Part shown: piece after piece, positions 6,869 to 24,591 of the stretch
Layout of the letters: every line of letters starts with the position of its first letter
Numbering within the stretch: position 1 is the stretch's first letter
Origin: Phytomonas francai
Taxonomy: Eukaryota; Euglenozoa; Kinetoplastea; Trypanosomatida; Trypanosomatidae
DNA length: 27,427 nt
Reading direction: 5' to 3'
NCBI GenBank assembly: GCA_001766655.1
Contig: MJCC01000007.1
Coordinates: 380,076-407,502 of the forward strand
Translations under genes and position numbers: made by a program
The notes under the pieces: model-generated
Told to the model about the DNA's origin: nothing
Seen by the model: only the letters and a program-made list of their open reading frames with translations
The model's database searches: none

Positions 6869-8632
6869 AACCTCTGAAAGGGAGGACTGGACGAAAAGGA
6901 AAGAATTCGTGATAGGAGCATGTGAAGCTCAAGTTCTTTTTTTTTTTTTCATTTCGTTTTCTTTTAACTCAAGGAGGTTTTTGAGAAGATATCAGCACAC
7001 AGACGCAAATTTACGTATATATTTCACATCGATGCATATGTATTTGTACGTATATCCAGTGGCATATCTTTCTCCCCCTGCCTTGTTTCTTTATTATAAC
7101 TTTTATTTATTACCTTAATTGGGCTCTTTTACTGTATTTTATTAAGTTTGCAATCTTGGCGGTTTAATACAAATGCTTTACCCACATTTCTGCTTGTGTC
7201 TTTTCTTACTTTTGAAAGCTTGTTGTGTTTTTTCCCATACTTTTTTTTCCCTCCGAATGAGTGTTTGGTGTTCTGTTATTTCCTTTCTCCTTATTTTTAT
7301 GCTATTTAATTTGTTCTAATGATTCGAAATTTTATTATTGTTATTGTTATTGTTGGGAAAACATTGCACAACGGTAGAATTGGGATCTATGAAATTGGAA
7401 GACGTCACAAGAATGAGAAGAAAAGGGTATAGGACGAGCAGAAGTTGTATATAAAGTGTATGGAACTATCTTTGAAGGCTCCTTAGAACATACTTTGATA
7501 CATTTATATCTAAATACATACCCGTAAGGACTTTTTTTTTTTGAATATCAGGCTCTTGATTGATTGATTTTCTTCATTTCAACATCAGTTTTTATCTGTG
7601 CTTCGTATGGTACAATTTCCTTTGGATGGATTCCCTTTTTTTGTTAATAGAGAACTTCATAATGATTGAACTTTCGCGTGTATGCTATAGAACCGTGCGT
7701 ACATACATACCTATTTATAGTGTTGGTACATGAATAAGTTTTAGGTATCATTGTAAGCTACAACCTTTGTGATTTCAGGAAAGGGGGAAACAATTTCTTA
7801 CAGCGGTAATTATCCTTTGAGTAGTTTAAAGTAAAATAATTCGACCTGTTTGTTTTGATTTTTAAAAAACTGCAAAACTGCTTCTGGCATTTTCTTATAT
7901 CTTACCATCTCGTCCAAGTTGTAAAAAGGTCTCTTCCGCCATCATATTTGCCAGTATTGTAAGGCACAGAAAGAATGACAAAAAGGGTTGAGAGCGGTTG
8001 TTTTCTGTTCTGAATAGAAGAGGAATAACATATATTATATATGCAGTGCGTCTAATTTATTGAGAAATGGGTAATTGGGTCAATTAGGTGAGGCAAAAAA
8101 TACTGAAATAGAATTGAAAATACTTTATTTACTCTTTTGTTTATATATATTTAGAGGAAAGATTTTTTTAAATTATTGTTGTTAACAAAGACTAAGTTGG
8201 ATTATATTATATCTTAAGAAAGTGACATGCTTTTCAAAAAAGGGTAGTGGGCTTTAATCACCGTTCAAATTTTCCATGAATACAAATGAAGGCAGGGAAG
8301 GAAGAGAAAAGACTCAAACCTTACTGCTGACAATTGGAGATGAGCGCGGGGTTCTTTTCGGTTCATTTTTTAACAATTACTACATAACTGGCATTTTTTT
8401 TTCCCAATACAGTTCCCACTCTTACTATTATTATCACCAGTTAAAAAAGCAGATTGAGTATTTTACACTAATTATTTTGTGTAGCATGTTTTTCCTTTGA
8501 TATTATTATTTTCTTATTATTAGTTTATGAGATTGTTTAACTACGCCCCACTTTCTTCTTAAATACATATACATGTATATATATATTTAATAAATTGTTT
8601 TCAATCTCTCACGATCACACAATGTGTTAGTT

Positions 8633-8677
8633 GATGGGTGATATAAATTCCATTGGGAATTTAGTTGAGCACCCATC
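8633..8677. other. Two-tier nested stem-loop
   Basis: GATGGGTG (8633-8640) pairs perfectly with CACCCATC (8670-8677). Inside, TAAATTCC (8644-8651) pairs perfectly with GGAATTTA (8656-8663) around the loop ATTG. The stems are separated by an asymmetric internal loop, ATA on one side and GTTGAG on the other. It could be a 3'UTR regulatory hairpin or part of a small structured RNA; the sequence alone does not decide, and either strand could fold. Confidence 0.55.
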
Positions 8678-9056
8678 TTTTAGGGTAAGTTAAAGAATGT
8701 TCAAGCGACATCTTCTACCCTCCTTCCGCCTTTCCTTGACCTATGATTAGTGAACTAAGGTATTATAAAATGCTCGCTTGATCCATTAGAGTAGTTGTGT
8801 TTTATGATATAGTGCACTTAGCTACGGCAGGCTAATTTTTCACAAAAGAGACGCACCAAGACTAAACAGTAATATCATTCCTCTCTTAGAGTAGTCGAGT
8901 CTGAATGATGAAAAGGAGTATTTCAAGACCATACAGCTACCATCCTTCGCGTTATGTATGACGCAATTAAGAGTTTTTTAGCGGGGTAAGATAGCTCAGT
9001 GCAACACTTTCCGGAATCAAGAGCGCCAAATACAATAAAAGCGTTAGGGTGGGGAG

Positions 9057-9086
9057 GAAGAACTACGTACCACCACACAGTTCTTC
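9057..9086. other. Simple stem-loop
   Basis: GAAGAACT (9057-9064) pairs perfectly with AGTTCTTC (9079-9086) around a 14-nt loop. In DNA of this composition a single 8-bp stem can arise by chance. Confidence 0.3.
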
Positions 9087-9100
9087 ACATATTGTTTTTC

Positions 9101-9125
9101 TACCTCTAATAAAGGTGGAGAGGTA
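9101..9125. other. Stem-loop with TACCTCT/AGAGGTA arms
   Basis: TACCTCT (9101-9107) pairs with AGAGGTA (9119-9125) around an 11-nt loop. A hairpin with nearly the same arms lies upstream of the second RRM gene at 12734-12750. Confidence 0.35.
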
Positions 9126-9436
9126 ATAAAATGCGCTTAATGTGGCAGTATAAAAGTGTCTCTTCCTAATGGAAAACCCTTTCCCATTTTTCCCTTATAA
9201 TTTGTCAAGTTCATGAAAAAAAAATTCTACAATTTTCCTACTCATTTTCGCTTCCACTGCTGAATTTTATTTTAAAAATCTCATGATGACCTGCATTCGT
9301 TGGTTCAGTTTCATTGAAATTTGAAGTTCCAAACAAATTCCAATCTCGCAACCCTTTCCCTTACAATTTACTCCAAAATACATTTTCCCATTTTATTTGA
9401 AAAGGGTTTCATCAAAAGCTTTTAAATCTGAAGAGC

Positions 9437-9480
9437 CCGTTTGTTCCTTTTATTTGCAATTATATTCTTCGCTAATTAAG
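9437..9480 (+). promoter_or_regulatory. Weak putative trans-splice acceptor for first RRM gene
   Basis: A T-rich, pyrimidine-biased stretch ends in an AG at 9479-9480, 81 nt before the ATG, with no ATG between. The tract is broken by purines, so the true acceptor may lie elsewhere. Confidence 0.35.
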
Positions 9481-9561
9481 TTTGTAAGTATAGGGAAACA
9501 CCTTGATTAAATTTGAATAATATACTACTGAACAAAACAGAAGAGAAAAACACTGAGCCTC

Positions 9562-10078
9562 ATGACCAGTCTTCAAAATCTATTCGTAGCAAAGTTGCCG
9601 CGCACCGTTACCGATACAGAGCTCGAAAAGATATTTGAGTCGTACAACCCCAAAAGCGCCAAGGTGATGCTCGACGCAGCCACCGGCAAAAGCAAGGGCT
9701 TCGGATTCGTCCTTTTCGATTCCGAAGAGGAGGGCGAGCTGGCCTTCAAGGAACTCAACAAAACTCACGTCACCATTCTCGGTCAGAACTTCAACCTGTG
9801 CATATTCCCCTCCAAGCATGACGGCAAGGTCGCGAAGGAGGTCAGCAACGCCCTTTACATCCGAAACATTCCGATGCGGCTCTCGTATATGGAGGTTGAG
9901 GCCTTCCTGAACAGCTTTGGCAAGCTGACGTACTTCGCCATGCGCGAGGACCACTACGGCAGCCCGGTGTGGGTCGTCTACGCGGAGTACGAGACCGTCG
10001 AGGATGCCAAAAACGCCCTCAACAAGCTCCACGGCAACAGCACGTACTTCCTCGGCTCTGCCGCCCTGCTGGCGAAGT
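9562..10078 (+). repeat. Direct repeat, copy A (RRM1-RRM2 block)
   Basis: Reading the two copies side by side, I found no difference between 9562-10078 and 13911-14427 (517 bp, offset 4349). The base before the ATG already differs (C against A), and after GCGAAGT the sequences diverge at once. Confidence 0.9.
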
Positions 10079-10833
10079 TTGAGGACAGCGAGGGGGTCAA
10101 GCGCGAGCGACGTCACCGCCGCCGGGAGGGCGTCGGGGCGCCCCCGAGCCACCCAAGCAGTGGGGTGATCTTCCCCCCCCGGCGGGGCGGCGCCGGGGAT
10201 CCGCGCGGCGGGGCCCCGCTGGGCCCCTCCTCTGGCCCGGGCTCCGGCCTCTTCCTCGGCTTTCCTCTCCCCCCGTCGGTCGAGAACAGTTCCTCCTCCC
10301 CCTCGCTCTACCTTAGCAACCATGAGGTCGCGGGGGCGGACGCGATGGCGCCGCCGCCCTACTCGGGCCAGCCGAGCGGCCACACCCCGCCCGCGCCCTC
10401 CCTGGGCCTGCCGGACTACCAGCCTCTGCAGGGCCTCGTCGTGCCGCCGCCGCCGCCTGGCTTCTGCTGCGTCCTCCTCGAGAACGGGCAGCAGGTCTAC
10501 CTCCCGTCCTCCGCCCTCGGCCAGGGCGCCGCGCCGCTCAACTTTGTCCAACTCCAGCGGCTCGCGCCCGGCGGGGCCGACAGCGGCCTCTCCCTTATGG
10601 GCTACAACGCCCCCGCGGCCACGGTCGTCCTCGCGGGCGCGCAGGAGCCCCTCGTGCTGGGATCTGAGACGCTCAGCCTTGCCTCGCCGCCCACCACCGG
10701 CCTCACGGCCTTCTCCCCGACCTACGGCGACAGCGCCCCCCTCCTTCACACGCCCTTCCTCGTGTCCTCGATCAACAACTCCCCACCGCCGGTCGGGTGT
10801 GGGCGCCAGATGGCTCCTTACATCACGATATAA
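9562..10833 (+). CDS. Two-RRM RNA-binding protein, copy 1, with Pro/Gly-rich tail
   Basis: This 423-residue protein has two RRMs. RRM1 (about 5-80) has RNP2 LFVAKL and a canonical RNP1 KGFGFVLF. RRM2 (about 94-172) has RNP2 LYIRNI and a divergent RNP1 around VWVVYAEY. A basic segment KRERRHRRR follows and could be a nuclear-localisation or RNA-contact patch. The rest is a low-complexity Pro/Gly/Ser/Ala tail with a PPPY motif (264-267) and VVPPPPPGF. I associate this tandem-RRM type with kinetoplastids but cannot name the orthologue. Such proteins are usually post-transcriptional regulators, which is inference here. Codons 1-172 are nucleotide-identical to those of the gene at 13911, whereas the tails do not align. 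The tail is much richer in GC than the RRM block. Long AT-rich spacers flank the gene. Confidence 0.88.
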   Translation: MTSLQNLFVAKLPRTVTDTELEKIFESYNPKSAKVMLDAATGKSKGFGFVLFDSEEEGELAFKELNKTHVTILGQNFNLCIFPSKHDGKVAKEVSNALYIRNIPMRLSYMEVEAFLNSFGKLTYFAMREDHYGSPVWVVYAEYETVEDAKNALNKLHGNSTYFLGSAALLAKFEDSEGVKRERRHRRREGVGAPPSHPSSGVIFPPRRGGAGDPRGGAPLGPSSGPGSGLFLGFPLPPSVENSSSSPSLYLSNHEVAGADAMAPPPYSGQPSGHTPPAPSLGLPDYQPLQGLVVPPPPPGFCCVLLENGQQVYLPSSALGQGAAPLNFVQLQRLAPGGADSGLSLMGYNAPAATVVLAGAQEPLVLGSETLSLASPPTTGLTAFSPTYGDSAPLLHTPFLVSSINNSPPPVGCGRQMAPYITI

Positions 10834-12206
10834 GGCAAGGGAGGGAGCTCCGGCGAAAGCGCTGGGGTTGGAGTGTGTGTGAATCGGCCTTGTGACCTGC
10901 CGCCCTCTGGTGTGACACAGGGTGGGGGGGGAGGGGCGGGTGGTATTTCTGCGTCTCGGCACCAGGGGGATGGAAGGGAGGCGTAATAAGCGGAGACGCT
11001 AAAGGATCTGCAAGGTTGGGACTGCAGGAAGTGTTGTATCTTTTTTATTATGGCTGATAACTGTAAGTAATATTCTTTAGAAAATTTATCCTTTGCATGC
11101 CATCAAGTCAATTCAAACCAAATATTTATGTTCTATGCTATACATTTAAATTATTCGGTATTCAAGTTTTCCGATGGTGCTTCTTAGTTAATGTTTTGTT
11201 TCTGATTAAAAAAAGAGCTTTAAGTAGAGGGAAAAAATGCACCAACTAGTCACACATTAATGATAATATCGATAATCAGAAAGGCTATTTAACTCTCTCT
11301 TTTTGAGGGTTTTCATTTTTTCCCATTCTTAAAACCAGGAATCATTTTAAATCAGAAATAGTGATTTTGTTTAGCTCTTTTAATACTTAATAGCGTGCTA
11401 ATCTATCTGAACATGTGTCCATTTTACTAATACAAGATGGCATCTTTTGTTTTTATTTAACCTTTTAGTATCTTGTCGTGGGAAATGGGCCTTGTCTATT
11501 GTTATCACTAATTATTGCTCTAGCATGAGTACATACTAAAATTTGCATTTTTGTAGTATTTCTTTGTTGTTGTTCATTTTTTTGCAGTTTTTCTTACATG
11601 TTTTGGGGGGTATCATTTTTCCCCTCCGTGTTTGTCTATATTGAATATCTCAGAATTAATACAGTCGCGACTACCAAGTACGTCTAAATAAACATGGAAA
11701 GGGGCAATTATTTTTTACCTATGTCATACAGGCGAGTACTCGAAGAATCAACGGCTAGGGAAATCCAGAGCTGTTTGGTTCCATATCTGTGTAGTTTTCA
11801 GAAAAAGATACCTTTTTCTATTTTTTTTTTTTTGCCGGCGCGTTCTGTCATTTCTCAGCTTGATGATGAAGCTCTTCACGGTATGTCTTTTGAGAGAATC
11901 TGTAGTTTTGGTTTCAATCTTTTAAAAATGCAACTTTTATGGGCTGTTATAGTTGATGGATGTATTTCTTAGGGTATTTTCTCCTTTTTTAGTTAATACT
12001 TTCTTCGTACGTAGAGCGGGGGTTGCGACTTTGCGAGCTAATAAGAGCATATTCAATGAATTCAAAACGAGGAATCTCTCCTGATTAATTTTCCTCAACC
12101 TGTCTAGCTCATCTAAATCAAGCAGCTGAGTCAATTTACTAAATGGGATTATCTATGTGCATTCGACCTTGAGGGAGTTAATACACATTTGTTGTGTACT
12201 TCAAAT

Positions 12207-12273
12207 TTCAATGAATATTTTGCACTTTTTCTCCTTGGGGGGTGGCTTTTGTCTATGTGCAGCATTCATTGAA
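12207..12273. repeat. 10-bp inverted repeat in AT-rich spacer
   Basis: TTCAATGAAT (12207-12216) and ATTCATTGAA (12264-12273) are perfect complements with a 47-nt loop. The 10-mer TCTATGTGCA occurs at 12152 and again exactly 100 bp later at 12252, inside the loop. It could be chance. Confidence 0.3.
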
Positions 12274-12309
12274 GTCCATCTTAAAGGTTGCAATTAGTTA
12301 TTCGTTTAA

Positions 12310-12313
<4 letters not shown>

Positions 12314-12342
<29 letters not shown>
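12314..12342. repeat. (AT)n microsatellite
   Basis: An uninterrupted AT dinucleotide run of 29 nt. Confidence 0.9.
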
Positions 12343-12355
<13 letters not shown>

Positions 12356-12733
12356 ATGTTATTCGATTATACTGTTATTTGCTTATTTTTTTCTTCTTTG
12401 AGTCTCTTTATGGATTCAAGACCCATATTTGCACCATTATTTGATACCCTGAATTATCTTTGTATTCTTAATAAAGTGCTGAATTAATTTGGTACTGCCA
12501 TTTTATCAACTTGAAATGATAAAAAGTGTTTTATTGAATTATATGCATTCACAAATACGTACAGCAGTTTAGATATTAAACGTAGAATTTATGGCTCATT
12601 AAAAGAAACCTATCCATAAAAAAAGGAGGTGTCACTACTAATTTCCAAAAGAAAAAAGGTAGAAATAAAGTGCTATTCGTTTTAAAAAATACCCTCTTTT
12701 AATGCTACAGCTTTGTGAACATTTCTTCTAGAC

Positions 12734-12750
12734 TACCTCTTCAGGAGGTA
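12734..12750. other. Short hairpin TACCTC/GAGGTA
   Basis: TACCTC (12734-12739) pairs with GAGGTA (12745-12750) around a 5-nt loop. The arms repeat those of the hairpin at 9101-9125. Confidence 0.3.
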
Positions 12751-13733
12751 TACCATTTTGGCGCATCTGTTGCTGTACATGAAGTCTAACAATAGACAAT
12801 CCTTTTGGAACAAAAGAAGCAATTTTAATTTTTGCGTGTGCTATACATTACATGGTCCATAAATGCGGTGGAAAATTATTACCTCATCTTTTTATTTTAT
12901 TCTATATTTTTTGCCTTCCTCATTCTGTTTTGACGTTTAGCTTCAACTTAGTTTTATGTGGCCGTACTTTTAAAGTACACAGAGTGCCGCTATCAGGACC
13001 GTGCTTCGCTCTTTGGCTTATCAGAACATAAATTGATTTTTTTTAAAGGGTGCAAAATGAGTATTGATAGAGGTAAAACTGGTGCTAGTAATATAAAGAG
13101 TTGTGTGCACTTTTTTGATTGCAAAAAAAAAAAAGGAAAAGAGAGTTTTATACTCTTCCTAGATGTTTATAAGATTACTGCAGAAAAATATGGTCCGAAA
13201 GAGACAATAGCGATATTACCTGTTACATTTTTTTTCTTTCAGGCATATGTGTGTTCGAAGTTTAACTAAAGTGTAACCAAGACATCTTATACTAAGCATG
13301 TTAACCTATTTTCCAAAAGCTGAATTTATAAATCTAAACCTAAGTAACTATATTCGATGTGTAACAAATGTACGAACACATCAGGAAATGGGGAGAATAA
13401 TTTTTTAAATAAAGCCGATCCCAAAAGTGTTGTGTGCTATATTATTTAGTGAAAATTTTCTTTACATACCCACTGATAGGTATAGCAACCTATGAGCATA
13501 ATTGCTTTTTCTTTTTTTCAGCCCTCATGCTTTCCCGATTAGATATTTAAACAACACTAACTCAATTTACCCCGTCACAAAATTTTCTTATTTTAGAGAG
13601 GTGTAGCTTTGTGTGTGTGGGTGGATGGGTCAAGTTATTTATGCATGGAATTTGACTAAAATGAAATTTATTTTCACCCAATAAATTTTCACTTTTTAGA
13701 AAGATTTTTACATTTCATCAAAATAAAAGTAAG

Positions 13734-13763
13734 CCTTTCCTTTTTTTTTCTTTATTTGCATAG
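13734..13763 (+). promoter_or_regulatory. Putative trans-splice acceptor for second RRM gene
   Basis: A strong pyrimidine tract (13734-13758) is followed by GCATAG, with the AG at 13762-13763. The predicted leader is about 147 nt and contains one short upstream ORF. Confidence 0.6.
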
Positions 13764-13766
13764 TGC

Positions 13767-13796
13767 ATGAGGAAAACACTAGTTCGGAAAGTATAA
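13767..13796 (+). other. Possible upstream ORF (9 codons)
   Basis: The ATG at 13767 opens a nine-residue frame (MRKTLVRKV) that stops at TAA 13794-13796. It begins four bases after the predicted splice AG and 114 nt before the RRM start. If the acceptor is right, it lies in the mature leader of copy 2. The candidate leader of copy 1 (9481-9561) has no ATG. Confidence 0.35.
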
Positions 13797-13910
13797 CCCT
13801 TGCTAATATTTTCACTCAAAAAAAACTATTGTCTAATTTCCTCCACCAAAAAAAGTTAAGCTGTAAAAATATACCCTTCTTGATCTTTCAAAGCGATCAT
13901 TAATATAAAA

Positions 13911-14427
13911 ATGACCAGTCTTCAAAATCTATTCGTAGCAAAGTTGCCGCGCACCGTTACCGATACAGAGCTCGAAAAGATATTTGAGTCGTACAACCCC
14001 AAAAGCGCCAAGGTGATGCTCGACGCAGCCACCGGCAAAAGCAAGGGCTTCGGATTCGTCCTTTTCGATTCCGAAGAGGAGGGCGAGCTGGCCTTCAAGG
14101 AACTCAACAAAACTCACGTCACCATTCTCGGTCAGAACTTCAACCTGTGCATATTCCCCTCCAAGCATGACGGCAAGGTCGCGAAGGAGGTCAGCAACGC
14201 CCTTTACATCCGAAACATTCCGATGCGGCTCTCGTATATGGAGGTTGAGGCCTTCCTGAACAGCTTTGGCAAGCTGACGTACTTCGCCATGCGCGAGGAC
14301 CACTACGGCAGCCCGGTGTGGGTCGTCTACGCGGAGTACGAGACCGTCGAGGATGCCAAAAACGCCCTCAACAAGCTCCACGGCAACAGCACGTACTTCC
14401 TCGGCTCTGCCGCCCTGCTGGCGAAGT
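13911..14427 (+). repeat. Direct repeat, copy B (RRM1-RRM2 block)
   Basis: Partner of 9562-10078. The unit starts at the A of the ATG and ends one base into codon 173. The next residues (KYADTEETKRERR against KFEDSEGVKRERR) are homologous but diverged. Confidence 0.9.
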
Positions 14428-14684
14428 ATGCGGATACAGAGGAAACCAAGCGCGAGCGCCGTCGGCGTCGCCGGGAGCAGCACCAAATGGGGATGCAAGG
14501 AAGCGTCACTAATAGCTACTCCCCGTTGACCGGGTCCCATTTGGGGTCGAACCTATCCCACAGCATCAGCCAGATCTTCTCTACAGCGGCCGAGGAGGAC
14601 CCGATGATGATGGTCGACCGCGTCGACGTCCCCTTCATTCAGCGCTACTCGTCCTTCGGGGCGCCTTGCCACGGCCGGGTCCTG

Positions 14685-14721
<37 letters not shown>

Positions 14722-15482
14722 AGTACTCCGCCCCGAAGCCCAAGCCCCCCGCCCTCGCCCCGCAGCCCAAGCCCTCCGCCCTCGCCCCGCAGCTCGCCAT
14801 GGACGTCCACACGCAGTCCCCAATCCCGCCCCTGGCGTCGACCTTCCTCAACGTGACCTTTCCCACGACGGCCTCCGTCAACAGCGGGCACTCGACGCGG
14901 ATGTCCGCGGTCGAGCAGTGCTCTGCGGACCGCCCGACCTCGGTGACCCCGCTCAGCTTCAGCCTCGGGCCTGACGCGGCGCTCGAGGGGAGCAGGCACT
15001 TCCCGCCGCAGATGTCCCTCCTCGGCGCGGAGTCGGGCGGCGCGAATACCGGCTTCTCGATCGACACCCCGGCGCCGCAGAGCGGGACGCTGAGCGCGAG
15101 GGGGAGCACGCACTACCGGCACAACCCCTACGCCCTCCTCACGCCCATCTCCTCCCCGATAGGCACACCGAGCCCGGGCACGCCGAGCCCAGGCACGCCG
15201 AGCCCAGGCACGCCGAGCCCGAGCACCCCGCGCGGGGTGCTGCCGATCCTCGCCGGCGGCGTCCTCGCGCACTTCGGCGGCAGCGGCGGCGGCGGCTCCA
15301 GCGCGGCGAACGCGAACGTCTTCTCCGCGAGCACCTCGAACAACACCAGCGGGTTCTTGTGTTCGGCGCATGGCGGCGCACAGAACGGTGGCTACACCGG
15401 GTTCACCCACGCCCACTTCGCGCGAACCAGCTCCCACGGGGTCCTCGCCACCTCGAACATGAGCATCAACAGCCGAAAATAG
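13911..15482 (+). CDS. Two-RRM RNA-binding protein, copy 2, with polyproline and GTPSP-repeat tail
   Basis: This 523-residue paralogue has the same first 172 residues as copy 1, so the same RRM1 and RRM2. A basic segment KRERRRRRR follows. Its tail is different: Ser/Met-rich sequence, ten prolines from (CCG)10 ending in a PPQY motif (269-272), PKPxALAPQ repeats, four tandem GTPSP units (about residues 418-437), a Gly/Ser-rich segment and an Asn/Ser-rich end. The SP/TP dipeptides could be phosphorylation sites for proline-directed kinases. The PPxY motif sits almost where copy 1 has PPPY (264-267), although the tails do not align overall. RNA binding is well supported by the RRMs; the target and direction of regulation are unknown. 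The start is fixed by the shared ATG. Confidence 0.88.
14691..14720 (+). repeat. (CCG)10 trinucleotide run encoding polyproline
   Basis: Ten uninterrupted CCG codons inside the copy 2 tail. All prolines use one codon, so the run may be young and variable in length. Confidence 0.9.
15162..15221 (+). repeat. 15-bp coding tandem repeat (GTPSP x4)
   Basis: Four units of GGCAC(A/G)CCGAGCCC(G/A) in frame encode GTPSP four times. The units differ only at third positions. Confidence 0.9.
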
Positions 15483-15652
15483 ACTTCCCGCACCTCTGCG
15501 CCATACTGGGCTTCTTCCTGGGGTTCTAGAGGCAGGGGAGTTGTAACAGTTCGGTTGGATTTCATAGCTGACGTCAACTGCGCGGTGGGCTCAGTGTTGG
15601 ACTACGAAATTAAGCGAATAGCACAGAGAGCTTTTTTTGTGCGTGTGTGAAA

Positions 15653-15673
15653 GTGTGTGTGTGTGTGTGTGTG
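15653..15673. repeat. (GT)n microsatellite
   Basis: An uninterrupted GT run of 21 nt in the downstream region of the second RRM gene. Confidence 0.85.
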
Positions 15674-17627
15674 AAGAGGTGAATGGTAAGGGGAGAGGTG
15701 GAGGGCGTACAAAAACTTGCTGTCCTGTAATAAGCATGTGGAAGCAAAAGGACGAAAATCATAACGTTGGTTTACGTGAATTTTGGTTTTGCTTAGCGGT
15801 ATAAATTCTACATTTAGCGCCTAATCTATATTTCTGATATCTTATCCTAGTTAATTGGACTGGGGGTTATGAACTATACATAACATCTGTAATATTCGTC
15901 TTGTTAACGAATCTGTCTGTTTTTTTTTTGACTTTTATACAATAAGGAAAGGGAAAGAGGAGGGGGTAGGGGTCGGAAGCACTGATAGATTCAGAAAAAA
16001 AGTGCGGTATAAACCCTAATTTGCATGGTGAAATGGCTTGGGACTTCCTGTTAAATATCCCGAATATAAATCTTAATTACGTTTAAGTACGGTAATACGT
16101 ATTTAGAGTTAGCTCTGAGAACGTATGCAACACCAGAATATTTTTGTTATTCGGTGAAAATAGGAATCGCGATTTAGGTGTTATTTAGACTAGATATCAA
16201 CACTGGAAATGGGAGTAATCCTGCATGTTCTTGAAAATGAGATAAACGACTTCGTTTGTAGTATCTAATGTTTTAGCCACTACGTCTTCGAATAGGTATT
16301 GTAAAAAACATAGAATCTTGGTTACTTTCCCAAATTCTACTATACACGTTTCTCTCTCCTATTCTGTGAAATAACTTAGCCCCGATACGCTTTTGCGGTT
16401 ATAATGATAGTAACATAGGTTGCCGACACCAAAGGAGAGGAGGGTTTTGTTTAAGCTTTTTTTGACGTTTTTTAATTGGGAGGATAACCTAATATGTTAA
16501 TTGAAAGGCAACAGGGAATGCGATCGGACGTGTATAAATATAGATATAAATAAATGATAAATATTGATATGTATTGGTGCATATTTATATTTATGAAATG
16601 TTATGGAAGGTATTTTCTGAATTGAACTCATATGGCTCCTTAGGAAATACATACCTCTTTGTTTGGGTACATTTATGTATAAGTTCCTTATTTTTACATG
16701 GGTCTTTAGGATCGTCTGGTCGTTGATAAAAGGAGATGTCATTATTTCCTTTTGATTTTGTTGTCTTGAATAGTCTTTACATTTTCTTTTTTGGCCACTT
16801 TTGTTCTATTATTGTTTTTTTTTACCTTTTTATTAAATAGCGGAGTCAAAAGAGCTACTCAATAAAGCTTGATACTTTATTTGGAGCACCCTTTTTTAGT
16901 TGCACCGCTAAAACAAGATATCTTTTATGTGAAGATTATTTTGAAATAAAATGTTGTAACTAAAGAAAGCATTTAATTTATAATCTAAGGGAAAGTTTTT
17001 ATGCTGCCCTATAAGCATCTGCTTACGTATGTTTAATTGAATACTTTGTAATTAGCGATTGTTTAAATGAAAAACCAATGCTCTTCCTTTCCTTCTTATA
17101 AAGGAATCTTGATGCTGTCGTTTTTTAATTTTTGGAGCGTAGATTCTTCTTTGGCTTTCACCTACTCCAATCATTCATTTATTCCTCGTCCTTTCATATT
17201 TATTCAATAGACATGCATATTATATAAAATGAAAGAATCATGGCAGTTTCATATTTGATGAGACTATGTATCTTTATCAATGTTCTTTTTTTTGCTTTTT
17301 TACACATTTCAATATTGATCTCTGTTACATAACTAAACTAAGGATGGTATTATTATTTTTCCTCCACGTTTTTTACTCCTTCACATTCTTTCTCGAAAGC
17401 ATTTTCGAACGGTGTCTGTAATCAAACTTTGGTGGGAAATACTAATAATAGACGTCTTAATAACCTGGTTCTGTTCCCCACCAGGGCGTTTGCTCTTCTC
17501 GGACTGCTTGATTGGCTGTTCCCAATAGGCAAAAAAAAAACGTGTTTATTAGCTTCTTTTTATCCGAACCAAGCTCTATTTATTTACTTTTTTTTTAATG
17601 GCGGAAGCATAACCTCTGATTAGCACT

Positions 17628-21195: not shown

Positions 21196-22446
21196 ATGAA
21201 ATTTACTGTTCGCTCATCGCTTGCTTTTTCCCAAGCACGCACAGCAGCAGCACCTCATTCGCTCTCACTTCGCCAGCTGATTCGAGGCTTTCCTGCACCA
21301 TCGCATTATCGAACGCACCCTTTCATCGTATGCCCCGTACCGACATTTTGTGGTAGTATCGTACCGTCCCAGTCGCGGGGAATTCACTCCAATGCGGGTT
21401 TCATGGACGATGACTTTGTGGATATTGATATGCCAACTGAGCTGGACAGCACACAAGTTGGGCCAGACAACAATGGTCCCCCCACCAATACGAACTCGGC
21501 TGCGGCCATCATGACGCCAAAGATTTGCGTGTCTGACGTAGATAAGCCAGTTCTTGGTGCTGTATACAAGCCACTGGAGAAACCTGGAACTGAGTACTCG
21601 CGATTCCGCATTCCATTGGAAACCCCTCGGAAGGGGAGGACCGTTCCGCGGTACAACAGCCGTTCGCTCCAGCAGTCCAACAAAGTGTCCCACGCGGGCA
21701 AGGAGGAAATGGGTGGTGGGGTACACGCCAAGTCGTCGCAGACCGGCGGCGTAAGGGATGAAAAAGAGTCTGTACCGCAAGATTCGAAACCACTACTCAC
21801 GGCAAAGGATTTGCTCGATCCGACGACGCTGGAGGGGGACGACGTCACCGCTCATCTGTCACACGACCGCATGCCAGAGCCCTCTTCCTTGCCGTACGAT
21901 GATGAGGCTTTTGCGGAAATGCTGCTCCAAATGGAAGTGGATGGCGCTATTGACGAGGTGTGGCAAGACGCCAAAAAAGCTCACGTGGAGGATGTCAAGG
22001 AGCTTCGCGAGGTGCTTCTGTCGCTCAAAGTGCGCGACATCTGCTGCATCGATGTCTCGGACAAAACCGCGAGCTTTGACTACATCATATGTGGGACCTG
22101 TGAAGGCCCTCGACATATCCACATCGCCGCTTGGGCGGCGCAGGAGGCGGATTCACTGCATCGTGTATCGAAGGTTAGCAGAAAAAAAAAGGATGAGTTG
22201 TGGGAGGTGGTACCCATCGGGCGCATCTTGCTCAGCCTCATGGTCGAGAGCCTGCGCGAGGAGCTGTCGCTGGAGCGTAAATGGGCGGTTACCCGCACCA
22301 TGGACCCGCTTTCGGCCGCGAATGCCCCTGTTAGCGAGGGCCGCCATGTTAATGCCCATGGTCTTTGGACGCTGACGTTGAATCTGCAGGACCTGGAAGA
22401 CTTTGAAGTAGACTACTGCAAAGATGTGCTCTTGGGTCAAGCGTAG
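21196..22446 (+). CDS. Mitochondrial RsfS/Iojap-domain protein (mitoribosome assembly or silencing factor)
   Basis: This 416-residue protein has an N-terminus rich in Arg, Ser and Ala without early acidic residues (MKFTVRSSLAFSQARTAAAP), typical of a mitochondrial presequence; RGIHSNAGF near residue 65 is a plausible end of it. An acidic, low-complexity region follows (70-245). The C-terminal part (about 266-400) reads as an RsfS domain: LREVLLSLKVRDICCIDVSDKT, DYIICGTCEGPRHI, then W-x-VVPIGRILLSLM...LREELSLERKW, which replaces the usual VVHVF...REFYDLE.LW. RsfS-family proteins bind uL14 of the large ribosomal subunit and block subunit joining; the mitochondrial relative MALSU1 acts in mt-LSU assembly. 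A mitoribosome role here is inference. The family domain is only about 105 residues, so the N-terminal extension is long. It is the last plus-strand gene before the convergent junction. Confidence 0.8.
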   Translation: MKFTVRSSLAFSQARTAAAPHSLSLRQLIRGFPAPSHYRTHPFIVCPVPTFCGSIVPSQSRGIHSNAGFMDDDFVDIDMPTELDSTQVGPDNNGPPTNTNSAAAIMTPKICVSDVDKPVLGAVYKPLEKPGTEYSRFRIPLETPRKGRTVPRYNSRSLQQSNKVSHAGKEEMGGGVHAKSSQTGGVRDEKESVPQDSKPLLTAKDLLDPTTLEGDDVTAHLSHDRMPEPSSLPYDDEAFAEMLLQMEVDGAIDEVWQDAKKAHVEDVKELREVLLSLKVRDICCIDVSDKTASFDYIICGTCEGPRHIHIAAWAAQEADSLHRVSKVSRKKKDELWEVVPIGRILLSLMVESLREELSLERKWAVTRTMDPLSAANAPVSEGRHVNAHGLWTLTLNLQDLEDFEVDYCKDVLLGQA

Positions 22447-22475
22447 CGGTACGATCTCTCTCTCTGTCTCTCTCT

Positions 22476-22511
<36 letters not shown>

Positions 22512-23367
22512 GTAGAAATGGACTAAAGTATCATCCATTAGCGTTTCCAGTAGAAGCACCTATATTGTGAGCGATGCTCACCGTCAACACTATAAGTCGT
22601 ACATCCCTGAAAAGTTGGATTCAATTGAGAAACATGTCATTAAAGATTCTGAGCTTAAGTGTAATATAAATCTTTGCTTTTAGGGATAGAAAAAAAATGG
22701 GGGTTCGGTTTGCACGTTTTCCTGTTTTTGTCTCTCTGGTAGGCGGGGAGGCCGCGTAGGAGCATGCTCCAGTTGTATCCAATCAGACAATATCCTCTTT
22801 CAATCAGTATCAGGGTTACAGAATTTGTGTTTAATTGTAGATTTTTCACAAATATATAATATATTGTATAGTGGCGCATAGATTATATATTTCAATGTAG
22901 TTTCCCATTGCATTTGACAAACAAATATAAGATCAAATAAGCATATCTCACTGCATATAAAATTAGTTTCCCATTAAAGCATGTAGCACATCATTTAAAT
23001 CTTTTTCCCCACTTTTATATCACTGAAAAGCATATTGTGCCGTCGCACGTTTACATAAATTGCGTTACGCCGTTCTCCTATGACATTCACGTCCTCCCAT
23101 AAATTTCGAAAATACCCCCCCCCAGGTTGCGCCTTGCCATGTACCTGAAGGTAGAGAGTGCATGTTGCTTATGGGAGAAAATATGCAAGTATTTTATTCA
23201 AGGTTTTAACATAATGCGTCTCTCATAGTCACTTCCTTTTGGACAAATAGATATAATTCTAAATCTAAAATTGATCTACTGGGTGTTATTTCATTTTTTA
23301 AAAACCTGAAAGCAAAAAAAAAGAAGATTTCACATTTTCCTTCAGAAAGCATTGTTATGGGTTGTAA
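22447..23367. other. Convergent strand-switch region (probable transcription termination)
   Basis: The plus-strand block ends at 22446 and the minus-strand block ends at 23368, so two polycistrons converge on this 0.9 kb. It contains a CT/TA repeat, a perfect small hairpin GTGAGC-GAT-GCTCAC (22567-22581), a run of nine C near 23107-23115 and AT-rich DNA. No gene is seen. In kinetoplastids such regions are where Pol II transcription from both sides ends, often marked by base J or variant histones; those marks cannot be read from sequence. Confidence 0.7.
22455..22508. repeat. Compound (CT)n-(TA)15 microsatellite
   Basis: A TC/TCTG-rich run (22455-22478) passes directly into fifteen TA units (22479-22508), just after the stop of the RsfS-domain gene. 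Confidence 0.9.
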
Positions 23368-24591
23368 TTACATAATTTTTTTAATGATTTCCGTCAACTC
23401 CTCTGCCCCGAGAATAGTCGGAACAGGGTACAGCGGGTTAGCTTCGCTAAGAGCACGCGATACCATCAGTGGGATGTCATCCTTGTTGATCGTGTAATTT
23501 TTTTCTTTCCCTGGTATTGTTTCCGGTATATCCAGTACCGCATTCAGGTCTCTGATTGCTTGAATAAACTTGTGAGCGCGCTCGGCGTCATTGCCCTCGG
23601 TAATACCGATAGCCCCCGCCAACTGGGCTAGACGGCGGTGTGCAGAAGGACCGTACGCCTCAAGAACATGTGGAAGAAGGACAGCGTTGGCGTAGCCATG
23701 AGGCACGTTGTACAAACCGCCAAGTGTGTGTGCAATCGCGTGAACGTAGCCCACGTACGCACGAGTGAAGGCGAGCCCTGCGGTGTACGCCGCATCCATC
23801 ATGGCCGTGCGGGCCTCAAGGTCGCTGCCATCTTTGTACGCCTTGGCAAGGCTCTTGAAGACAAGCTGCACTGCCGTGAAGGCGTCTTGTTCCGTTTGCT
23901 TGACCTGCAGGATGTTTATGTAAGACTCAACGGCGTGGGTCAATGCGTCCATACCAGTTGTGGCGGTCACAAACTTGGGCAGCATGAGAGTGAGACACGG
24001 ATCAAGCACCGCATAGTGTGGAAACAAGGAGGGGTCCTCGACGGGGTACTTGTTTTTCCCCTTGGCGTCAACCACAACGGCGCCCAGTGTGCACTCCGTC
24101 CCTGTGCCGGCTGTTGTAGGAACCACAAAAAGGGGTGGCAATCTGCGTAGCACCTTGAAGATCCCGGCCATCTGCTTAACTGTCATGTTTGGCCGCACGA
24201 CACGTGCCCCGACCAACTTTGCGCAGTCAATGGGACTGCCACCGCCGAAACCGACGATGTGATCGCATTTGTTATCCAAATACATCTTCAGTGCCTCCTC
24301 GACCTGCTCCTCGATCGGGTTGGGGGTCACGCCTTGGTAGATCGCAGTCTCCAGCCCCTTCTCCTTCATTCCCTTGATGAAGGAATCGAGGAGGCCGAGG
24401 CGCATGAGGACGCCGTCGGTCACAACCAGACTCCGTCGCAGACCCTTGCTTTGAATGAGTGCTGGGAGATCTTTTATGGCACCAGGACCTTTCAGAAGCT
24501 CGGGGCGCCTCCAGGGGATAAAAAAGGCAGACGCATACATAATGTATTGGAAGGCACGGCATGCCGCCCACCAGAACAGGGATACGGGCAT
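23368..24591 (-). CDS. Iron-containing alcohol dehydrogenase
   Basis: This 407-residue protein has the full-length fold of the Fe-ADH family. The NAD(P) site is seen as GGGSPID (116-122). Predicted metal ligands are D215 and H219 (GMDALTHAVESY), H284 (GYVHAIAH) and H298 (NVPHG), matching D196, H200, H263 and H277 of FucO; H288 matches the conserved histidine next to the active site. PTTAGTGTE (158-166) is the usual cofactor loop. It should interconvert an alcohol and an aldehyde with NAD(P)H; the substrate cannot be told. The N-terminus (MPVSLFWWAACRAFQYIMYASAFF) is hydrophobic, and I see no C-terminal SKL-type glycosomal signal (it ends KKIM). The family is patchy among eukaryotes and common in bacteria, so an ancient transfer is possible. 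It is the last gene of the minus-strand block. Confidence 0.93.
   Translation of the reverse strand: MPVSLFWWAACRAFQYIMYASAFFIPWRRPELLKGPGAIKDLPALIQSKGLRRSLVVTDGVLMRLGLLDSFIKGMKEKGLETAIYQGVTPNPIEEQVEEALKMYLDNKCDHIVGFGGGSPIDCAKLVGARVVRPNMTVKQMAGIFKVLRRLPPLFVVPTTAGTGTECTLGAVVVDAKGKNKYPVEDPSLFPHYAVLDPCLTLMLPKFVTATTGMDALTHAVESYINILQVKQTEQDAFTAVQLVFKSLAKAYKDGSDLEARTAMMDAAYTAGLAFTRAYVGYVHAIAHTLGGLYNVPHGYANAVLLPHVLEAYGPSAHRRLAQLAGAIGITEGNDAERAHKFIQAIRDLNAVLDIPETIPGKEKNYTINKDDIPLMVSRALSEANPLYPVPTILGAEELTEIIKKIM

What the first reader, a model, noticed from the sequence alone, without database searches (positions are those of the whole stretch)
9562..14427. Two RRM paralogues share a 517-bp block that appears identical and starts exactly at the ATG
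9562-10078 and 13911-14427 read as identical, including all silent sites and unfavoured codons. The base before the ATG differs, the upstream spacers look unrelated, and just after RRM2 the genes drop at once to diverged homology (KFEDSEGVKRERR against KYADTEETKRERR), then to unalignable tails. A simple recent duplication would not leave such edges. The pattern fits gene conversion that keeps homogenising one RNA-binding module while tails and UTRs evolve freely: two regulators with the same RNA specificity but different partners and control.
Basis: partly seen in the sequence, partly recalled or inferred. Interest (0 to 1): 0.75.

Follow-up and report, generated by a model that had tools for sequence, protein, structure and literature searches.

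The report
RNA-binding gene pair overwritten by conversion
Two neighbouring RNA-binding-protein genes in a plant-trypanosome-like genome, old duplicates with different tails, carry a letter-for-letter identical RNA-binding half, most likely because one copy has recently overwritten the other; such copying between neighbours is known in these parasites, and this is a clean example.

Summary
Confirmed: 9562-10078 and 13911-14427 are identical over 517 bp, ending at the ATG on the left and at base 10078/14427 on the right. A genome search found only these two copies. The nearest proteins are from Phytomonas EM1 and Hart1. Both genes encode two RRMs. Their tails match two different old orthologue groups, A and B, that also stand next to each other in Leishmania relatives, so the duplication is ancient and recent exon shuffling is excluded. 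In those relatives the RRM blocks of A and B are only 61-67% identical; here they have zero differences at about 113 synonymous sites. A recent gene conversion is therefore well supported. An older transfer of B-type RRM1 into gene A, before EM1 and Hart1 split off, is likely from marker residues but not proven by tree tests. Three Trypanosoma species look partly homogenised too, sparing residues about 68-82 of RRM1 (proteins only). The same genome has similar exact-core blocks in UBP1-like and DnaK-type tandem pairs. The ATG edge is where homology ends. Best reading: ectopic gene conversion, a known process; shared RNA specificity is plausible, untested.

The parts
9562..10833 (+). Gene A: 423-aa protein with two RRMs and an A-type tail (SSGVIFPP ... 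GFCCVLLENGQQVYLPSS)
   Evidence: ORF; Pfam RRM_1, two stretches; tail against HMMs built without Phytomonas: A 2.4e-12 and B 5.9e-6 with the basic linker, A 1e-5 and no B hit at E<=10 without it
13911..15482 (+). Gene B: 523-aa protein with two RRMs and a B-type tail (STFLNVTFPT ... HYRHNPYALLTPISS)
   Evidence: ORF; Pfam; tail: B 2.7e-19 and A 0.031 with the linker, B 4.1e-17 and A 1.7 without it
9562..10078 (+). Converted block, copy in gene A (codons 1-172 plus one base)
   Evidence: 517/517 identical to 13911-14427, maximal exact match
13911..14427 (+). Converted block, copy in gene B
   Evidence: as above
9562..9840 (+). RRM1 (aa 1-93) in gene A; carries B-type marker residues (C80, F82, K85)
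   Evidence: diagnostic sites; residue-82 marker; model; tree placement on the B side not decisive
9841..10077 (+). RRM2 (aa 94-172) in gene A; shares more states with Leishmania A than B from codon 118 on; direction of transfer not resolved
10078..10131 (+). Basic linker of gene A (FEDSEGVKRERRHRRREG), first diverged segment after the block
   Evidence: 7 of 18 amino acids differ from gene B; 3 of the 11 codons with the same amino acid differ silently
14427..14480 (+). Basic linker of gene B (YADTEETKRERRRRRREQ)

Best explanation
Genes A and B are an ancient tandem pair of double-RRM regulators in a trypanosomatid closest to Phytomonas. Ectopic gene conversion between the neighbours, probably during homologous-recombination repair, copied one gene's stretch over the other. 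Homology ends at the ATG, because the upstream flanks are unrelated, and fades in the basic linker after RRM2, so the tract fills the RRM block and stops there. Shown: identity, edges, two old tail orthologies, diverged blocks in relatives, and comparable exact cores in other tandem pairs of this genome. Likely: an older transfer of B-type RRM1 into gene A before EM1 and Hart1 split off, so that at least two rounds took place. Inferred: the repair mechanism, and that both proteins now read the same RNA motif while the tails recruit different partners.
For: Identity with sharp ends. Tails belong to different old orthologue groups. Adjacent locus tags of A and B proteins in L. martiniquensis, Leishmania sp. 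Namibia and Porcisia, and equal longest-contig lengths in other pairs. Within-genome RRM identity 61-67% in seven Leishmaniinae pairs (Porcisia counted among them) against 100% here. Window A differs from EM1 A at 18 and from Hart1 A at 17 of 172 residues, but from window B at none. Residue 82 is F in 26 of 27 B-tail rows and Y in 13 of 17 A-tail rows; the four A exceptions are the window, EM1, Hart1 and one T. grayi copy, and the one B exception is the other T. grayi copy; 11 further rows had no clear tail type. In codons 1-111, 19 of 22 classifiable sites are B-type in the window (6 more fit neither). Three Trypanosoma pairs have identical runs of 65-78 residues, reached in 0 of 5000 shuffles. 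Exact core blocks in two other tandem pairs of this genome.
Against: No relative's DNA was available, so recurrence outside the window rests on proteins. No B protein of EM1 or Hart1 was found, so an older event is read from gene A alone. Tree tests do not prove it: for RRM1, Phytomonas with Leishmania A is not rejected (p 0.14, log-likelihood 17 lower), nor Phytomonas with Leishmania B (p 0.21); with Trypanosoma, the unnamed pair and window B left out, the A-tail rows held together fit as well (p 0.56, log-likelihood 0.59 higher), which leaves Phytomonas free to sit on the branch between A and B. The rejection of all A rows as one clade (p-AU 3.8e-6) includes the Trypanosoma rows and may come from T. 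grayi. RRM2 looks A-like, which may be retained ancestral state. Raw reads were not seen.
Confidence: 0.87

Rival explanations
1. Assembly artefact: two diverged blocks were collapsed or over-polished to one consensus.
For: No reads available; the 200 kb of this contig fetched hold 10,077 N (why is not known); relatives have diverged blocks.
Against: Both copies sit in unique flanks on one 822-kb contig, with no N in the window. Gene A of two separately sequenced Phytomonas has the same marker residues in RRM1. Blocks as far apart as in Leishmania would hardly collapse to zero differences.
Confidence: 0.05
2. Exon shuffling: a recent copy of the RRM block was fused to an unrelated tail, making a new gene.
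For: The edge at the ATG and the unalignable tails would look like this.
Against: Each tail has its own orthologues attached to RRMs in other trypanosomatids, and A and B bear adjacent locus tags in other genomes.
Confidence: 0.02
3. Very strong purifying selection on protein and RNA keeps the blocks identical, without conversion.
For: RRM cores are conserved.
Against: The same block differs by 17-18 of 172 residues between the window and EM1 or Hart1, and all about 113 synonymous sites agree between the two copies.
Confidence: 0.01
4. Conversion is favoured by selection: keeping one RNA specificity in two regulators with different partners is the reason the blocks stay the same.
For: The block covers exactly the RNA-binding half; the pair looks homogenised again in Trypanosoma; UBP1-like neighbours show the same core identity.
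Against: A DnaK-type chaperone pair on the same contig shows the same pattern, so a general habit of the genome explains it. Leishmania and relatives keep the two RRM blocks diverged. In Trypanosoma the spared segments suggest selection for difference, not sameness.
Confidence: 0.25

Closest known systems
Concerted evolution and gene conversion in Trypanosoma brucei tandem arrays (Jackson 2007, PMC1855330; abstract and search passages seen)
   Same: Tandem duplicates homogenised by gene conversion; chimaeric copies in 21 of 47 arrays; homogenised and diverged parts in one locus; loss of orthology between species
   Different: In the passages seen the only RNA-binding protein is a nucleolar one (array 64a); this RRM pair, Phytomonas, and a tract bounded at the ATG were not seen there
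UBP1/UBP2 tandem RRM genes of trypanosomatids (the window genome's pair lies in L003, C8:219500-228500)
   Same: Neighbouring RRM genes with exact blocks of 185 and 164 bp in the coding part and diverged flanks; best PDB hit of one copy is T. cruzi UBP1, E 7.1e-48
   Different: One RRM, short tails, exactness interrupted by a diverged patch, and identity continues a little beyond start and stop
T. brucei RBP7A/RBP7B, tandem and described as almost identical (PMC4403954 passages; PMC6034907 passages)
   Same: Tandem, nearly identical RRM regulators
   Different: Described there as single-RRM, with chromosome-10 gene numbers; the closest T. brucei protein to this family (P0063) has its longest contig at 1.18 Mb, short for chromosome 10 (its length recalled), so it is probably not RBP7
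T. brucei DRBD5, Tb927.6.3480, a double-RRM repressor (PMC5380359 and PMC5746284 passages)
   Same: Double RNA-binding-domain regulator; possible orthologue, by recall of chromosome synteny only
   Different: Orthology not tested here: no DRBD5 sequence was at hand

Membership tests
Ectopic gene conversion between tandem paralogues | Tract of near-perfect identity, silent sites included, inside otherwise diverged paralogues | tested here: met
   517/517 identical, diverged flanks
Ectopic gene conversion between tandem paralogues | Duplication older than the identity | tested here: met
   Tails belong to separate orthologue groups shared with Leishmaniinae
Ectopic gene conversion between tandem paralogues | History of tract and flank disagree | tested here: met
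   For the window pair: identical blocks, tails of different groups. For the older step in EM1 and Hart1 the tree tests do not decide
Ectopic gene conversion between tandem paralogues | Non-reciprocal transfer seen in reads or crosses | not testable with these tools
   No reads or crosses
Tandem-RRM (HuR/HuD/Sxl/PABP-like) RNA-binding proteins | Two RRM folds in tandem | tested here: met
   Pfam RRM_1, two stretches; model mean pLDDT 87 but pTM 0.58; Foldseek HuR, Sxl, PABP and HuD RRM1-2 at E 1.5e-14 to 1.5e-13, whole-chain TM only about 0.4, so the arrangement of the domains is unsure
Tandem-RRM (HuR/HuD/Sxl/PABP-like) RNA-binding proteins | RNA binding and sequence preference | not tested
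   Needs binding assays; RNP1-like KGFGFVLF is present in RRM1, and RRM2 has VWVVY in its place (motif names recalled)
T. brucei RBP7 | Orthology to Tb927.10.12090/12100 | tested here: inconclusive
   No RBP7 sequence held; contig length of P0063 speaks against it
T. brucei DRBD5 | Orthology to Tb927.6.3480 | not tested
   No sequence held; name only from papers

The most novel reading that the evidence does not exclude
Tandem RRM regulators in trypanosomatids share one RNA-reading module by recurrent conversion while selection guards the parts that must differ. In Trypanosoma the tracts spare the segment between helix 2 and strand 4 of RRM1 (and of RRM2 in two of three species), which would set a residual difference in RNA choice; in Phytomonas this guard was lost and the two regulators became identical readers with different effectors.
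Probability: 0.18. Interest if true: 0.7.

Novelty: new member of a known kind. Interest (0 to 1): 0.4.

Why it matters
It shows that paralogous RNA-binding regulators, the main control layer in organisms without gene-by-gene transcription control, can be recoupled in their RNA-reading half long after their tails have diverged. RRM-only trees or best hits would then misassign orthologues, and reagents aimed at the block would not tell the two genes apart. The segments that stay different in Trypanosoma point to residues that may set RNA specificity, a direct hypothesis for binding tests.

Tried and rejected
Mosaic block (RRM1 from B, RRM2 from A): of 34 classifiable A/B sites in codons 1-168, 19 of 22 before codon 112 are B-type and 11 of 12 from 118 to 168 are A-type; 7 further sites there fit neither. 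The best split fits 30 of 34, as good in 8 of 100,000 shuffles. I first ran a Fisher test with a wrong count of 12 to 0 and corrected it. I do not claim the mosaic: B-type proteins P0030 and P0032 look alike in RRM2, Angomonas B shares some of the A-like states, and tree tests do not decide. For RRM2, Phytomonas with Leishmania A p 0.42; Phytomonas with Leishmania B, Angomonas B and one more B is already a weak clade (37/40); Phytomonas with Leishmania B alone p 0.018.

RBP7 identity: first guess from memory, dropped after the contig-length check. Reciprocal swap in T. grayi: seen in proteins, but the longest contigs of the two copies are 5959 and 3912 bases, so a mis-join is not excluded. No B protein of EM1 or Hart1: searched with gene A, gene B and the B tail; protein length limits and capped candidate lists apply. 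Paper searches listed no title on this pair; eight papers were opened, by passages only, the rest not. The synteny search gave gene identifiers only. tRNA scan of the window: none. NCBIfam on three proteins: DnaK and general RRM families.

Rows dropped: A1 holds 34 of the 106 proteins found plus the two window genes; A2 holds 53 of them plus the window block. The tail controls are not clean outside Leishmaniinae: with the linker kept, many rows match both HMMs; with it removed, four of six Trypanosoma A tails match A at 1.4e-7 or better, T. cruzi at 5e-4, T. congolense not (0.2), and of the three Trypanosoma B tails none matches B significantly, so their B label rests on the short YRHNPY motif. 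The unnamed A (euk5963) also fails (2.9). In one search the weights of the weighted shuffles come from the same seven Leishmaniinae pairs (P 0.34-0.55 weighted, 0.07-0.22 uniform), so these are no independent control. The unnamed pair also passes the run test (P 0.0008 weighted), Angomonas weakly (0.034), though their longest runs are only 21 and 17 residues.
Full report
OBSERVATION. The two stretches 9562-10078 and 13911-14427 are identical over all 517 bases; the base before and the base after differ. The block holds codons 1-172 of two uninterrupted ORFs of 423 and 523 residues, each with two RRM_1 stretches. No other exact match longer than 16 bp exists between 7001-12000 and 12001-17000. 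The upstream 800-bp flanks are unrelated (best E 0.54), and downstream identity decays within about 50 bases. In the genome (17.4 Mb, 37 contigs) the DNA search lists only these two copies; 15 of the 17 protein matches are other RRM stretches at 27-40% identity.

ORGANISM AND FAMILY. The best protein relatives are Phytomonas sp. EM1 and Hart1, then Leishmania, Leptomonas, Porcisia, Novymonas, Angomonas and Trypanosoma. EM1 and Hart1 proteins match gene A over 93% and 79% of its length; gene B only over 34%, the RRM block. Reading the tails shows two groups: A with GYCYTLxESGQQIFIPAS-like sequence, B with SYRHNPYAPVTP-like sequence. HMMs built from 10 A tails and 11 B tails without Phytomonas place the window's tails apart: with the basic linker removed, the gene A tail scores E 1e-5 against A and gives no B hit at E<=10; the gene B tail scores 4.1e-17 against B and 1.7 against A. 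A and B proteins bear adjacent locus tags in L. martiniquensis (LSCM1_03836/03837), Leishmania sp. Namibia (JIQ42_03502/03503) and Porcisia (JKF63_03002/03003). The pair is therefore an old tandem duplication, and the identity of the blocks is younger than the genes.

WHAT THE BLOCK IS. Within one genome the A and B RRM blocks are 61-67% identical in seven pairs of Leishmania, Leptomonas and Porcisia, 62% in Angomonas (partial A, 85 of 137), 58% in one further unnamed pair, 83-89% in T. theileri, T. grayi and T. melophagium, and 100% here. Residue 82 separates the types: F in 26 of 27 B-tail proteins and Y in 13 of 17 A-tail proteins (11 more rows unclassified). The four exceptions with an A tail are the window, EM1, Hart1 and one T. 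grayi protein; the one B exception is the other T. grayi copy. In codons 1-111 the window is B-type at 19 of 22 sites that separate Leishmania-type A from B and can be classified. In the RRM1 tree of 36 rows the window pair, EM1 A and Hart1 A form a starred clade (99/95) on the B side (83/100, not starred). Tests do not settle it: Phytomonas with Leishmania A p 0.14, with Leishmania B p 0.21; all A rows as one clade is rejected (3.8e-6), but that set includes Trypanosoma with its swapped T. grayi pair. With Trypanosoma, the unnamed pair and window B left out, the best unrooted RRM1 tree sets Phytomonas beside Leishmania B with Angomonas B outside them (95/83), but A-tail rows as one side fit as well (p 0.56). 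That the A state at residues 80-82 is old is suggested by Trypanosoma A proteins, most of which share it. So an older B-to-A transfer of RRM1 in Phytomonas is likely, not proven. RRM2 resembles A of Leishmania, which can be ancestral; its direction is open.

TIMING. The window's A block differs from EM1's and Hart1's A block by 18 and 17 of 172 residues, and from its own B block by none. With 113 synonymous sites and no change, pairwise dS is below about 0.027 (rule of three). The first codons after the block already differ in 7 of 18 residues, and 3 of the 11 codons that keep their amino acid differ silently. One recent event is needed; a second, older one if the marker reading is right.

RECURRENCE ELSEWHERE. 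The three Trypanosoma pairs have 19-29 differences in 170 aligned residues, but runs of 65, 69 and 78 identical residues; 0 of 5000 shuffles reach this, uniform or weighted by the Leishmania pattern. In all three, residues 68-74, 76 and 80-82 differ; T. theileri and T. grayi also differ through most of 159-171; T. melophagium has no difference after residue 93 within the block. On the predicted model 68-82 lies between helix 2 (55-65) and the last strand (80-84) of RRM1, reaching into that strand, and 159-169 between helix 2 (146-156) and the last strand (170-173) of RRM2. T. theileri and T. melophagium are close (94% in the A block) and may share events. This is a protein-level pattern, and the tail labels of Trypanosoma B rest on a short motif.

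BACKGROUND. A UBP1-like pair on C8 shares exact blocks of 185 and 164 bp with a short diverged patch between them (one copy tested against PDB). In 227.5 kb of C35 (10,077 N in the 200 kb fetched) the script finds three tandem paralogue pairs with ORFs of 150 aa or more within 20 kb; two further rows are antisense ORFs of the same pairs. Two of the three have long exact blocks: the RRM pair and a DnaK-type pair (one copy tested), where a 129-bp exact match begins at the ATG and a 1051-bp exact core is followed by a fall to 59%. The third pair is 26% identical at protein level. The sample was not random: it adjoins the window. So the habit is not special to RNA-binding genes, and the ATG edge is expected where upstream flanks are not homologous.

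MECHANISM. Most likely: homologous-recombination repair uses the neighbour 4.35 kb away as template. The tract can fill the block because homology runs from ATG to linker, and it stops where homology stops. Leishmania-like pairs at about 64% protein identity have probably passed below the level at which conversion works. This is inference from general knowledge of recombination.

FUNCTION. The block is predicted as two RRMs (mean pLDDT 87, pTM 0.58), with HuR, Sxl, PABP and HuD RRM1-2 among the best structural hits at whole-chain TM near 0.4. Two proteins with identical RNA-reading halves and different low-complexity tails are likely to meet the same mRNAs and act differently on them. That is plausible and untested. 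The T. brucei counterpart may be DRBD5 (a recalled lead; papers seen in passages), probably not RBP7.

KNOWN OR NEW. Widespread concerted evolution, partial gene conversion and chimaeric tandem copies are described for T. brucei (PMC1855330, abstract and passages). The present pair is a clean new example, with domain-wide exactness and old tail orthology as its strong points. The paper searches listed no title on this pair.

Noticed in passing
G000:C35:310736-312706 and 319990-321906 (outside the window): Tandem DnaK/HSP70-type pair: exact 129 bp from the ATG and 1051 bp core, then alternating diverged and 95-99% stretches and different C-terminal ends.
   Followed up: partly
L003 4353-4823 and 6768-7241 (G000:C8): UBP1-like tandem pair with 164 and 185 bp exact blocks around a short diverged patch.
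   Followed up: partly
L004 677-8691 (G000:C30:182500-192400): Three neighbouring RRM genes on the minus strand share exact blocks up to 133 bp; one ORF contains masked letters; another candidate for partial conversion.
   Followed up: no
T. grayi proteins P0036 and P0037: The RRM1 segment types around residues 68-82 look swapped between A-tail and B-tail copies compared with T. theileri; exchange or draft mis-join.
   Followed up: partly
window 22446-23368: Convergent strand switch: the plus-strand gene ends at 22446 and minus-strand genes begin at 23368, a likely end of two polycistronic units; no tRNA in the window.
   Followed up: no
window 10834-13910: About 3 kb of spacer between genes A and B with a TA repeat near 12311-12357; long UTRs likely.
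   Followed up: no
window 21196-22446: Protein with an RsfS-type domain at residues 270-363 (Pfam PF02410, E 9.2e-10) and a long N-terminal extension, possibly a mitochondrial ribosome factor.
   Followed up: no
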